From Sphaerochaeta sp. Phil3 (GTDB lineage Bacteria > Spirochaetota > Spirochaetia > Sphaerochaetales > Sphaerochaetaceae): DNA of 42,231 nt. The notes under the pieces were generated by a model, which saw only the letters and a list, made by a program, of their open reading frames with translations, searched no databases and was not told the origin of the DNA. Location of the stretch: NCBI GenBank assembly GCA_001940825.1, contig MSGT01000070.1, positions 1-42,231 on the forward strand, in the 5' to 3' direction. This document shows positions 11,035 to 21,129 of this stretch, in pieces. The position numbers were made by a program, and so were the translations under genes. Every line of letters begins with the position of its first letter. The stretch's first letter is position 1.

Positions 11035-12183
11035 ATGAATTTCAAAAACCAGTTGTCAGACGATGTATTGCTCAAACGTACCAAAAGCCGCACTGCAGAC
11101 GATGTGCGCTCTCCATACTACAGGGATACGACAGCGATAATCCACAGCTCTCCGTTCAGAAGGCTCAAGCATAAGACTCAGGTCTTCTTCGCTCCCAGCA
11201 ACGACCATATATGCACCAGAATGGAGCATGTCCTCCACGTTGCATCCATAGCCACCGCAATCTGTAGGGCCATGGGGCTGAACGATGAGATGGCATGGGC
11301 CATTGGAGTTGGCCATGACCTTGGGCATACTCCGTTTGGACACATTGGCGAGTTCATCCTCTCCGATATGATGAAGGAGAAGGGCTTTTGCGGTTTCGAA
11401 CACGAAATAAACAGCCTCAGGGTCGTGGATTTCCTCTCACATCTCAATTTGACGTATGCCGTGCGCGACGGCATTGTTAGCCACTGCGGAGAGCATTTCA
11501 TAAGGACGTTGGCTCCGGATTTCACCGTAAAGGACCTTGATGCCGTCGAGACGAAGAAGGGAATCCTTCCTGCAACATGGGAGGGGTGCGTCGTTAGGTT
11601 TTCGGATCAGATTGCATACCTTGGGAGGGATTTCGAGGATGCCTCCCGCCTTGGAATCGTGAAGAAAGAGGATTTGCCCGATATATGTACGAAGGTGCTT
11701 GGATCCACAAACGGCGAGATAATCAACACCTTGGTGGAGGACATAATCACGAACTCTGAAAGGGAAGGGGTGATTGGGTTCAGTCCTGAAATCTACGAAG
11801 CCATGCGCACCATGAAGGACTTCAACTACCAGTACATATACAAGTCTCCTATGCTTGGAGGTTACGAGAAGTATTTCAGGCGTCTCATAAAGCTCATATA
11901 CGACTACCTTTCAGGTCTTTTGGATAAGAATGGCTTTGATGGTAATCTCTATATGCAGGAAGGAAATATGCTCAGTGCTGGCTTCTTCAACTACGTAATT
12001 GAGAAAAAGGATGCGTACATGGAGCACGACGGCAGCCTTGACAGGATCGTATTCGACTACATTGCAGGCATGAGCGACAATTTCTGCATAGACTGCGGCA
12101 ACGAGATACTTCGTCCAGAGCATTTGAACGAGTCCATAGAGAGGTCCCTTACCGGTAAGTGGTTCGATGTCGCAAAGCCCTGA
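11035..12183 (+). CDS. dgt: Deoxyguanosine triphosphate triphosphohydrolase-like HD protein
   Basis: A 382-residue HD-domain enzyme that would split dNTPs into deoxynucleoside and triphosphate, lowering the dNTP pool. Signatures are SSPFRRLKHKTQVF, the metal ligands TRMEHVLHV and GHDLGHTPFGH (HD pair), and a downstream SHCGEH. The size fits the shorter Dgt-like class common in spirochaetes and firmicutes rather than the 505-residue E. coli enzyme. A purine-rich GAGGATGAGAG precedes the ATG. It is convergent with nrdR, the repressor of ribonucleotide reductase genes, so genes that drain the dNTP pool and limit its synthesis lie side by side. Confidence 0.92.
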   Translation: MNFKNQLSDDVLLKRTKSRTADDVRSPYYRDTTAIIHSSPFRRLKHKTQVFFAPSNDHICTRMEHVLHVASIATAICRAMGLNDEMAWAIGVGHDLGHTPFGHIGEFILSDMMKEKGFCGFEHEINSLRVVDFLSHLNLTYAVRDGIVSHCGEHFIRTLAPDFTVKDLDAVETKKGILPATWEGCVVRFSDQIAYLGRDFEDASRLGIVKKEDLPDICTKVLGSTNGEIINTLVEDIITNSEREGVIGFSPEIYEAMRTMKDFNYQYIYKSPMLGGYEKYFRRLIKLIYDYLSGLLDKNGFDGNLYMQEGNMLSAGFFNYVIEKKDAYMEHDGSLDRIVFDYIAGMSDNFCIDCGNEILRPEHLNESIERSLTGKWFDVAKP

Positions 12184-19771: not shown

Positions 19772-19774
19772 TTT

Positions 19775-19843
19775 TGCCAAATCGCCAAATGAAAACTTGC
19801 CAAATCGCCAAATGAAAACTTGCCAAATCGCCAAATGGCTTCT
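19775..19843 (+). repeat. Three exact-length 23-bp tandem repeats
   Basis: Units at 19775-19797, 19798-19820 and 19821-19843. The first two are identical and the third keeps the first 17 bases. Each unit contains two GCCAAAT octamer-like copies (GCCAAATC, GCCAAATG). The third unit supplies most of the -35 box (TTGCCA) and reaches the first base of the -10 box of the following gene. Confidence 0.95.
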
Positions 19844-19848
19844 ATAAT
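19820..19848 (+). promoter_or_regulatory. Promoter of the AAA_14 ATPase gene, predicted to give a leaderless mRNA
   Basis: TTGCCA (19820-19825), a 17-base spacer, and a perfect TATAAT (19843-19848). The expected start point, 7 bases after the -10 box, is 19855, which is the A of the ATG. No ribosome-binding site exists upstream. Confidence 0.75.
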
Positions 19849-19854
19849 CAACGT

Positions 19855-21129
19855 ATGAGTTCATACAAACCAAGGATTGCAGATGCATTGCTAGCCAGGA
19901 AATTGAGAGGTAAAGGTGCTGTTATAGTAGAAGGGCCAAAGTGGTGTGGAAAGACCACTACTGCAGAACAGCTTGCGAAAAGCGTCCTTTATATGTCCAA
20001 ACCTGAGGATTTGAAAGAGAATCTCTTAATGGCAGACATAGATCCATACAGTTTGCTTGAAGGTGAAACTCCTCGTCTGATAGATGAATGGCAGATAGCT
20101 CCAGGGCTTTGGGATGCAGTCAGATTTGAGGTTGACCATAGGGGAGGAGTTGGGCATTTTATACTTACAGGGTCAGCTGTACCACCAAGGACAGCTGAGA
20201 TGGTTCATTCTGGAACCGGTCGTTTTTCAAGGATGAAGATGAGACCGATGTCGTTGTATGAATCAATGGAGTCTTCTGGAAAAATCAGCCTTGGTGACTT
20301 GTTCTCTCAACCAAAAAAGGTTTTTGCAAACAACGATTTGGGAATAGCAGAATTGGCTTTTCTCATTTGTAGGGGCGGATGGCCAAGTTCCATCGATATG
20401 GAGCAAGATGTTGCACTGGATCAAGCTTTCGATTATTTCGATGCAGTTGTCAATGTTGATATCTCAAGAGTCGATGATGTAAGACGAGATTCTGAAAGAG
20501 CCAAACGTCTTATGAAGTCGTACTCAAGGCATCAAGGAACGCAGACGACATATACTGTGATAAGAGATGACATTGCCGCAAATGACTCCGATTTCCTAAC
20601 TGAAGATACTGTATATTCATACACGAATGCCCTGCGGAAAATCTTCGTAATAGAGGATATGCCTGCCTGGAATCCAAACCTTAGATCCAAGACTGCAATA
20701 AGAACTTCCGATACGAGGTATTTCGTGGATCCATCGATAGCGGCTGCAAGCCTTGGACTTGGCCCCAAGGATTTGCTAGGGGATTTGAATACCATGGGTT
20801 TGTTGTTTGAAACTCTTTGTGTCCGTGATTTGAGGGTGTATGCCGACAGTTTGTTTGGCAACGTCTATCATTACAGAGACAAATCAGGACTTGAATGCGA
20901 TGCCGTTGTTCATCTGCGCGATGGTTCGTATGGATTGATTGAAATCAAACTTGGAGGAGATAGGCTCATAGAGGAAGGTTCTAGGAATCTGAAGGCTTTG
21001 TCGGAAAAGATAGACACAACCAAAATGAAGGAACCTTCGTTCCTAATGGTTCTTACGGGAACTGGAAAATACGCCTACAGAAGGGAGGACGGTATCTACG
21101 TTGTTCCCATAGGGTGTTTGAAGAATTGA
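19855..21129 (+). CDS. AAA_14/DUF4143 ATPase
   Basis: A 424-residue protein of the bacterial and archaeal AAA_14-DUF4143 family, whose role is poorly known. The P-loop GPKWCGKTT is at 27-35, the acidic Walker B-like PRLIDEWQ at about 73-80, and the sensor segment HFILTGSAVP and arginine-rich GRFSRMKMRPMSL follow. The C-terminal half is DUF4143, ending in a PD-(D/E)xK-like core: Glu/Asp in GLECDAVV and EIK near residue 362. The ATPase and nuclease-like residues both look intact. It has its own promoter overlapping a triple repeat and no ribosome-binding site. Members are often solitary and spread by transfer. An autoregulatory or defence-like role is speculation. Confidence 0.88.
   Translation: MSSYKPRIADALLARKLRGKGAVIVEGPKWCGKTTTAEQLAKSVLYMSKPEDLKENLLMADIDPYSLLEGETPRLIDEWQIAPGLWDAVRFEVDHRGGVGHFILTGSAVPPRTAEMVHSGTGRFSRMKMRPMSLYESMESSGKISLGDLFSQPKKVFANNDLGIAELAFLICRGGWPSSIDMEQDVALDQAFDYFDAVVNVDISRVDDVRRDSERAKRLMKSYSRHQGTQTTYTVIRDDIAANDSDFLTEDTVYSYTNALRKIFVIEDMPAWNPNLRSKTAIRTSDTRYFVDPSIAAASLGLGPKDLLGDLNTMGLLFETLCVRDLRVYADSLFGNVYHYRDKSGLECDAVVHLRDGSYGLIEIKLGGDRLIEEGSRNLKALSEKIDTTKMKEPSFLMVLTGTGKYAYRREDGIYVVPIGCLKN

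What the first reader, a model, noticed from the sequence alone, without database searches (positions are those of the whole stretch)
19775..19855. Triple 23-bp repeat merges with a promoter that should make a leaderless mRNA
Three 23-bp units, each with two GCCAAAT copies, end exactly where the -35 and -10 boxes of the AAA_14/DUF4143 gene begin. The -10 box is perfect and the ATG is where transcription should start, with no ribosome-binding site. Neighbouring genes mostly have clear ribosome sites. The repeats look like an operator array, so the gene may control itself or be silenced by a host factor.
Basis: partly seen in the sequence, partly recalled or inferred. Interest (0 to 1): 0.55.

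Follow-up and report, generated by a model that had tools for sequence, protein, structure and literature searches.

The report
Private promoter arrays of DUF4143 ATPases
A very common but uncharacterised family of candidate anti-phage genes carries, in front of many of its members, a short repeated DNA address of its own that the gene's protein seems to read, so these genes probably control themselves and can now be tested.

Summary
The repeat is real: three 23-bp units (19774-19837) before an AAA_14/DUF4143 ATPase gene. It overlaps the promoter (-35 TTGCCA 19820-19825, -10 TATAAT 19843-19848; predicted transcription start at the ATG). It is not a local oddity. Among 80 orthologs from several phyla the best repeat lag is 23 bp (70) or 46 bp (8). 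Many paralogs in this genome carry arrays with different units; spacing follows protein clade (23 or about 33 bp), and a classical clade shows no excess. Unit letters covary with the protein: residue 343 K goes with C at unit position 2 in 92/92 genes, other residues in 2/27; a separate test set alone gives 28/28 against 1/14. Residue 251, at the start of the modelled recognition helix, covaries with position 11; other rules failed to replicate. Best explanation: operator arrays bound by the gene's own winged helix, most likely for self-repression. Binding, direction and function are inferred. PADLOC models place the protein in PDC-S01, reported as the fourth most common defence in prokaryotes, validation pending. 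My paper searches found no description of such arrays, in a library that lacks most subscription journals and preprints.

The parts
19774..19837 (+). operator array: three 23-bp units; cores 19776-19790, 19799-19813, 19822-19836
   Evidence: present as a 23-bp-period array in orthologs
19820..19825 (+). -35 hexamer TTGCCA, inside the third unit
   Evidence: 17 bp from the -10
19843..19848 (+). -10 hexamer TATAAT; the distance from the last core to the -10 is 7-8 nt in 9 of 15 Spirochaetota genes, window included
19855..19857 (+). ATG and predicted transcription start (leaderless mRNA, inferred)
   Evidence: 7 nt after the last base of the -10; no SD-like motif before it
19855..21129 (+). gene of 424 aa: AAA_14 + winged helix + DUF4143 (PD-(D/E)XK-like); PADLOC PDC-S01 model hit
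19933..19956 (+). Walker A, residues 27-34 (GPKWCGKT)
   Evidence: G27, K29, C31, G32, K33, T34 invariant in the 59-sequence alignment A1
20491..20724 (+). modelled winged-helix domain, residues 213-290
   Evidence: AlphaFold2 model, mean pLDDT 91.2
20602..20640 (+). recognition helix, residues 250-262; residue 251 covaries with the unit, best supported for position 11
20881..20883 (+). codon of residue 343 (loop of the nuclease-like domain), covaries with unit position 2
20893..20949 (+). PD-(D/E)XK-like active-site stretch, residues 347-365 (E347, D349, E363, K365 invariant in A1)

Best explanation
The repeat is an operator array for the AAA_14/DUF4143 protein that it precedes. The protein's winged helix (residues 213-290), helped by a loop of its nuclease-like domain (around residue 343), reads each 23-bp unit; several copies bind side by side on neighbouring units, cover the -35 and the spacer and shut off the promoter, so that the gene limits its own expression until something (phage infection, ATP state or loss of the protein) releases it. 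In Spirochaetota the mRNA is probably leaderless. Paralogs have different units, so the many paralogs of one genome should not cross-regulate. Shown here: the arrays, their conservation, clade-specific spacing, near-privacy of the units tested and covariation with the protein. Inferred: DNA binding, occupancy of several units, the sign of regulation (repression), and the trigger.
For: Best lag 23 or 46 bp in 78 of 80 orthologs, 69 of 80 above the 99th percentile of 1854 windows of the same loci. Own genome: 11 of 18 full-length DUF4143 genes above the 95th percentile (4 above the 99th) of 108 control genes with at least 100 bp of non-coding upstream DNA, Mann-Whitney p 4e-8. Lag follows protein clade: 7/7 genes of the window's clade and 16/22 of the 33-bp clade against 2/108 and 1/108 controls; the classical clade, 1/28 against 3/108, is an internal negative. 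Units found only at their own promoters in whole-genome searches for the three paralogs tested. Covariation: 343 K with C at unit position 2 in 92/92, otherwise 2/27; held-out set alone 28/28 against 1/14, Fisher 5.5e-10; 251 D with C at position 11, held-out p 0.033, independent pairs 6.6 same and 0.0 opposite of 10, median p 0.016. In a scan of all residues over 35 independent pairs, 251, 247 and 250 are among the top four of 236, and residues 243-258 exceed the rest, p 0.0027 (the stretch was chosen after on the same genes). Overall unit divergence is only weakly related to protein divergence (rho 0.10), although the closest pairs share units. The array stays at or just before the promoter while its distance to the ATG differs between phyla, which argues for action on DNA.
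Against: No binding or expression data. The sign is open: in Bacillota the core ends a median 28 nt before the -10, a place where activators also sit. The held-out set confirmed only part of the covariation: 251 D/N with C at 11 p 0.34, 334 D with A at 12 p 0.32, 212 N with A at 15 p 1, 245 E with G at 11 p 0.067. For residue 343 the tree gives 6 supported independent pairs, 4.7 same and 0.0 opposite, median p 0.0625; 343 with G at position 1 gives 3.8 and 1.0; 251 D with G at 12, though p 6e-6 in the held-out set, gives only 1.7 and 0.1 of 10 pairs; 334 N with G at 12 gives 0.6 and 0.0 of 8. The top 20 residues by mutual information are not significantly enriched in 205-260 (p 0.11), and the top residue of the pair scan, 57, lies in the ATPase domain. 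Seven of 18 own paralogs are not above the 95th percentile. One other unit (L033) has a further copy about 2 kb away.
Confidence: 0.65

Rival explanations
1. Positive autoregulation: the same protein binds the array but recruits RNA polymerase, giving an all-or-none burst of the gene.
For: In Bacillota and Bacteroidota orthologs the array tends to lie upstream of the promoter, as activator sites do; the same evidence for binding by the own protein applies.
Against: In the window, and by the 7-8 nt spacing in 9 of 15 Spirochaetota genes, the last unit covers the spacer and reaches the -35; in paralog L041 a unit lies between a -10-like box and the ATG (read by eye).
Confidence: 0.14
2. The array is the target of a host regulator or silencer, unrelated to the gene product.
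For: Multi-copy sites overlapping a promoter also fit a host regulator; no binding data exclude it.
Against: Array kept across phyla with different hosts, unit different between paralogs of one genome, letters covary with the protein.
Confidence: 0.06
3. The array is a DNA target of the nuclease-like domain: a cleavage, integration or exchange site that makes these genes mobile or lets members displace each other.
For: Active-site residues invariant in 59 sequences; residue 343, four residues before them, covaries with the unit; relic 23-bp arrays lie directly before other ATPase genes or gene pieces with repeats of their own (own L034; L404, L420, L401, read by eye).
Against: No unit core within 1 kb downstream of the gene in 72 of 73 loci, so it does not flank both ends; cutting the own promoter should be harmful.
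Confidence: 0.08
4. Neutral tandem duplication or a phase-variable repeat that tunes promoter strength by slippage.
For: Unit number varies from 2 to 6 among 81 arrays and differs by one between orthologs with 98.6% identical proteins, L103 and L105.
Against: Period kept at 23 bp and the same letters kept across phyla; units homogeneous inside an array (mean 1.27 differences in 7 positions) but not between arrays at 60-70% protein identity (4.16).
Confidence: 0.05

Closest known systems
PADLOC candidate system PDC-S01 (single-gene phage defence candidate)
   Same: The protein hits seven PDC-S01 models, best 4.6e-60 over residues 1-422. PMC12988326 (passages) describes PDC-S01 as an ATPase domain fused to a PD-(D/E)XK member and the fourth most common defence, with validation pending for most such candidates.
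   Different: Promoter arrays are not mentioned in the passages that I read; defence was not tested here.
Autoregulated operons with multi-site operators, such as toxin-antitoxin modules (recalled, no call)
   Same: Operator copies overlapping the promoter, gene product as the likely binder, units specific to each system.
   Different: Here a single ATPase with a nuclease-like domain rather than a small antitoxin; the same spacing across phyla; many members with different units in one genome.
SSO1545 (2fna) and PABY2304 (2qen), archaeal ATPases
   Same: Best solved-structure matches among the chains that Foldseek ranks highest: Z 13.5 and 14.3 over residues 1-300 and 1-301.
   Different: 16-18% identity; the nuclease-like part is not covered; no promoter array known to me.
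Orc1/Cdc6 initiators bound to origin DNA (2qby)
   Same: AAA+ plus winged helix that binds DNA (recalled); Foldseek E 8.7e-5, TM-scores 0.28 and 0.31.
   Different: Initiators bind origins; here the repeats lie at the own promoter and a nuclease-like domain is added.
Cdn1 / Card1 nucleases (9u49, 6wxw)
   Same: Among the Foldseek matches (3.8e-6 and 1.4e-4); PD-(D/E)XK-type nucleases (recalled).
   Different: TM-scores about 0.2; no AAA_14 domain (recalled).

Membership tests
Pfam AAA_14 + DUF4143 family | scores above both gathering cut-offs | tested here: met
   DUF4143 108.8 bits (cut-off 28.1), AAA_14 52 bits (cut-off 27)
PDC-S01 defence candidate | full-length match to a PDC-S01 model | tested here: met
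   PDLC04790, 4.6e-60, residues 1-422 on model 8-417 of 422
PDC-S01 defence candidate | protects cells against phage | not testable with these tools
   no experiment; published validation pending for most of these candidates (PMC12988326, passages)
PD-(D/E)XK nuclease superfamily | conserved acidic and lysine active-site residues | tested here: met
   E347, D349, E363, K365 invariant in 59 sequences; the motif itself is recalled
PD-(D/E)XK nuclease superfamily | cleaves DNA | not testable with these tools
   none
Autoregulated operator | operator copies overlap or abut the promoter | tested here: met
Autoregulated operator | operator conserved with the gene in relatives | tested here: met
   best lag 23 or 46 in 78 of 80
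Autoregulated operator | own protein binds it | tested here: inconclusive
   covariation only
Phase-variable repeat (contingency locus) | unit number changes between close relatives | tested here: inconclusive
   one-unit difference between L103 and L105; no strain series examined
Leaderless gene | transcription starts at the start codon, no SD | tested here: inconclusive
   promoter spacing and lack of SD, conserved in Spirochaetota; no 5' end mapped

The most novel reading that the evidence does not exclude
Several subfamilies of AAA_14/DUF4143 (PDC-S01) proteins are self-addressed DNA-binding nucleases: each carries its own tandem address at its promoter, the address can be re-programmed by few residues (343 and the start of the recognition helix), and the array is not only an operator but the place where the protein is stored or assembled, so that loss of occupancy (for example when invading DNA draws the protein away) both switches the gene on and frees the nuclease. 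Relic arrays in front of other family members suggest that such genes also displace one another at these sites.
Probability: 0.15. Interest if true: 0.88.

Novelty: new variant of a known kind. Interest (0 to 1): 0.72.

Why it matters
The family is reported as the fourth most common defence in prokaryotes (29,494 detected in Bacteria, 9,986 in Archaea; PMC12988326, passages) and the most frequent single locus in a survey of cattle rumen genomes (10,358; PMC13356809, passages); I found no established mechanism. A promoter array of its own gives each array-bearing member a ready binding site for the purified protein, a reporter for its regulation, and a predicted specificity code to test by swapping residues. 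It would also be a natural set of mutually orthogonal regulators.

Tried and rejected
Phage decoys: three patterns for unit arrays (one of three units, two of two units) gave no exact match in viral contigs. An earlier pattern had the wrong period (24 bp, my counting error); its 24 matches are other repeats, and tblastn found no relative of the protein in the fetched stretches. They are not used.

Array as a flanking element: only 1 of 73 loci has a unit core within 1 kb downstream. A shared chromosomal site: tblastn with trmB, mfd and the AraC gene of the window gave no hit in the fetched DNA around the orthologs (loci hold 2 kb or less on each side, L361 0.4 kb; no positive control was run).

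Solved structures by sequence: no close relative (best E 0.3). Samples by phylum gave few orthologs at E 1e-120: 7 of 398 genomes for Bacillota, and 1 of 395 for Bacteroidota, each count including the centre genome itself; a family-level sample was used instead (54 of 301 at E 1e-110).

Covariation rules that failed are told in the Against line. The identity limit of 56.5% for the held-out set was chosen after I had seen its table; the rule 251 D with G at 12 was added then too. Rows dropped: L087, L104, L124, L127 from the covariation set (weak arrays; 77 of 81 kept); in the test set 3 of 101 hits without a readable Walker motif, then near-copies over 95% identity (85 left), then 18 of 85 without a detected array, then the 25 more diverged genes with arrays (42 left). 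Lag classes were named after seeing the data, and related genes are not independent, so the Fisher values overstate the case. Seven of 110 survey genes were dropped as duplicates or for short upstream DNA. The control windows include much coding DNA.

Paper searches: DUF4143 1 paper (its passage read); COG1373, PF13635 or PF13173 8 papers, passages of three read; PDC-S01 3 papers, passages of two read; SSO1545 2 papers, passages of one read; unit sequences 0; PADLOC with related phrases 13 papers, listing only; combined terms 3 that look unrelated and 0. One search was spoiled by a term that matches unrelated words.

Full report
THE OBSERVATION. The window holds a 64-bp array of three 23-bp units at 19774-19837, 100% matching, directly before an ATPase gene 19855-21129 with AAA_14 and DUF4143 domains. 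The -35 box TTGCCA (19820-19825) is the start of the third unit, the second half of that unit fills the spacer, and TATAAT follows at 19843-19848, 17 bp away; the ATG stands 7 nt after the -10. So array and promoter overlap. The exact unit core occurs three times in the 2.36 Mb genome, all here; one other site has one mismatch.

ORTHOLOGS. A protein search of named genomes gave 80 relatives at 62-78% identity from Spirochaetota, Bacillota, Bacteroidota, Lentisphaerota and Actinomycetota (only the best 80 of at least 580 were kept). In 180 bp before their starts the best repeat lag is 23 bp in 70, 46 bp in 8, and other values in 2; 69 of 80 exceed the 99th percentile of 1854 windows from the same loci and 73 the 95th. 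An iterated profile gives 2-6 units per array in 81 genes including the window. Positions 3-5 (CAA) and 13 (A) are the most strongly kept, 14 (A) less so; positions 6-12 vary between lineages but are homogeneous inside an array: 1.27 differences over 7 positions inside, 4.16 between arrays whose proteins are 60-70% identical, 1.27 again at 90% or more.

PLACE. In 15 Spirochaetota genes (window included) the last core ends a median of 7 nt before the -10 (picked in 14) and 19 nt before the ATG, and 1 of 15 has an SD-like motif; in 37 Bacillota the medians are 28 and 66 nt and 29 of 37 have an SD-like motif; in 20 Bacteroidota a TAnnTTTG box was found in 17, at a median 17 nt (quartiles 16 and 39), ATG at 68 nt, no SD-like motif (boxes picked by simple rules, with some false picks). 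The array thus keeps more to the promoter than to the start codon. This fits a DNA-level role, and a leaderless mRNA in Spirochaetota.

PARALOGS. The genome has 20 DUF4143 matches; 18 are full-length with a Walker motif. Reading their upstream DNA shows 2-3 direct copies in many of them, with different units. Against control genes of the same genome (248, of which 108 have at least 100 bp of non-coding upstream DNA), 11 of 18 own genes and 23 of 85 genes from other genomes of the phylum exceed the 95th percentile of the 108, and 4 of 18 and 9 of 85 the 99th; Mann-Whitney p 4e-8 and 1.8e-7. On a tree of 103 proteins the lag follows clade: 23 or 46 bp in 7 of 7 of the window's KWCGKT clade, about 33 bp in 16 of 22 of a GARQVGKT/GARRVGKS clade, 32 or 64 bp in 5 of 10 of a third, against 2, 1 and 1 of 108 controls; a classical clade has such lags in 1 of 28 against 3 of 108, and its scores do not differ significantly (p 0.074). 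In a further clade, spacings of 39-40 or 74-86 bp were seen, some with internal palindromes by eye, too few to test. Whole-genome searches of two further units at up to two mismatches found only the three copies at their own promoters. Of 13 unit cores checked at up to one mismatch against 430 kb of the genome, three had a match elsewhere: two cores of only 13 bp (three places together) and one long core (L033), about 2 kb from its gene.

DOES THE PROTEIN READ THE ARRAY? Mutual information between unit positions and protein columns in 77 orthologs ranked residue 343 with positions 1-2, residues 245 and 251 with 9-12, 334 with 12, 212 with 15 near the top; only residues 245, 334 and 343 exceeded the maximum of all 20 shuffles, and the top 20 residues are not significantly enriched in 205-260 (p 0.11). 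A scan of 236 variable residues over 35 independent pairs put residue 57 first (ATPase domain, unexplained) and then 251, 247 and 250; residues 243-258 exceed the rest (p 0.0027; the stretch was chosen after on the same genes). The AlphaFold2 model (mean pLDDT 91.2) has a winged helix with helices 213-225, 233-242 and 250-262 and a wing to 290 (naming by me), so 243-258 is the start of the recognition helix and the turn before it. I then gathered a separate test set: 85 genes no more than 95% identical to the first set or each other, 67 with an array found by a detector that favours no letter at positions 1-2 and 6-12 (it fires in 3 of 1000 random pieces). In the 42 closer ones with arrays, 343 K goes with C at position 2 in 28 of 28, other residues in 1 of 14 (p 5.5e-10), and with G at position 1 in 25 of 28 against 3 of 14; 251 D with C at 11, 14 of 19 against 9 of 23 (p 0.033), and with G at 12, 18 of 19 against 6 of 23; 334 N with G at 12, p 0.0066; the rules for 251 D/N, 334 D, 245 E and 212 N did not reach significance. 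Over all 119 genes, 343 K goes with C at 2 in 92 of 92, others in 2 of 27. On the tree the independent pairs are 4.7 for and 0.0 against (median p 0.0625) for 343 with C at 2, 3.8 and 1.0 for 343 with G at 1, 6.6 and 0.0 (median p 0.016) for 251 D with C at 11, 6.2 and 0.4 for 251 D/N, 1.7 and 0.1 for 251 D with G at 12, 2.2 and 0.0 for 245, 0.6 and 0.0 for 334 N. I take this as good but indirect evidence that the protein itself reads the unit, with its winged helix and a loop next to the nuclease-like active site, whose residues E347, D349, E363 and K365 are invariant in 59 sequences.

WHAT IT IS. PADLOC models assign the protein to the candidate PDC-S01. Two papers, of which I read the passages with that name, report it as the fourth most common defence in prokaryotes with ATPase and PD-(D/E)XK parts and validation pending for most such candidates (PMC12988326), and as the most frequent single locus in cattle rumen genomes (PMC13356809). 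Solved-structure matches are archaeal ATPases 2qen and 2fna (Z 14.3 and 13.5 over residues 1-301 and 1-300), then NLR and CED-4 ATPases; Foldseek also lists Cdn1, Card1 and Orc1/Cdc6 on origin DNA.

MECHANISM. Most likely: the protein binds its array through the winged helix, several copies side by side, and closes the promoter (repression, inferred from overlap with -35 and spacer). Different units keep the paralogs apart. The trigger, and the role of ATPase and nuclease-like domain, are unknown; defence is a candidate only.

GENE TURNOVER. A two-unit pattern in 301 genomes of one Bacteroidota family matched in 35 genomes (the same pattern read backwards in 3). Of the 30 array loci held, 12 stand before an intact ortholog, 5 before a remnant of it (4 by tblastn, L417 by eye), 13 before neither; at least two of the 13 (L415, L416) look like plain simple repeats. 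In L404 and L420, as in the own paralog L034, a relic 23-bp array stands directly before another DUF4143-like gene or gene piece with its own 33-bp-spaced repeats (read by eye).

NOVELTY. None of my searches found a description of these arrays (listings, and passages where stated); the library lacks most subscription journals and all bioRxiv preprints, so earlier notice elsewhere is possible.

CHANGE ON CHECKING.

Noticed in passing
L034 (own genome C36), about 125-165 bp before the gene start: A paralog of the 33-bp clade has its own 33-bp-spaced repeat and, just upstream, a 23-bp array of the Bacillota type of the window's clade (GCCAATCGTCGGAA), although no such gene was seen beside it. It looks like the relic of a lost gene.
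   Followed up: partly
L404, L420, L401: Relic 23-bp arrays directly before other ATPase genes or gene pieces that have repeats of their own: nested promoter arrays (read by eye).
   Followed up: partly
L407, L417, L418, L419, L421: Arrays followed only by short N-terminal or C-terminal remnants of the gene; in three loci a match to the last 40-56 residues remains close to the array.
   Followed up: partly
L410, L393, L398: Orphan arrays beside genes that by eye resemble AbiE-type and DndC-type defence genes (names recalled, not searched).
   Followed up: no
own genome, 20 DUF4143 matches; G063 with 27: Strong expansion of the family in single small genomes.
   Followed up: partly
L253 480-520 (own genome C3, near 10.5 kb): A further copy of the unit of paralog L033 about 2 kb from that gene, beside a sequence that also occurs before paralog L026 (by eye).
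   Followed up: no
32-bp clade: L243, L246, L188, L217, L247: Promoters framed by inverted and direct copies of motifs such as TGCAAAATAGTC, by eye, in some with TTGACT inside and the ATG at the edge: perhaps leaderless and operator-covered too.
   Followed up: no
L401 gene (GRRRVGKT ATPase): A related ATPase without the KWCGKT motif may carry promoter repeats (TTTGGCATAATCT) as well.
   Followed up: no
plasmids H1-H6, phage records H7-H10, viral contigs L289-L292: Relatives of the protein on 6 plasmids of Bacteroides and Collinsella, on 4 phage records from human faecal samples and on 4 IMG/VR contigs.
   Followed up: no
L261, minus strand, upstream of the ORF starting at 11085: A control gene with a 31-bp exact repeat at 66 bp distance before it; not identified.
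   Followed up: no
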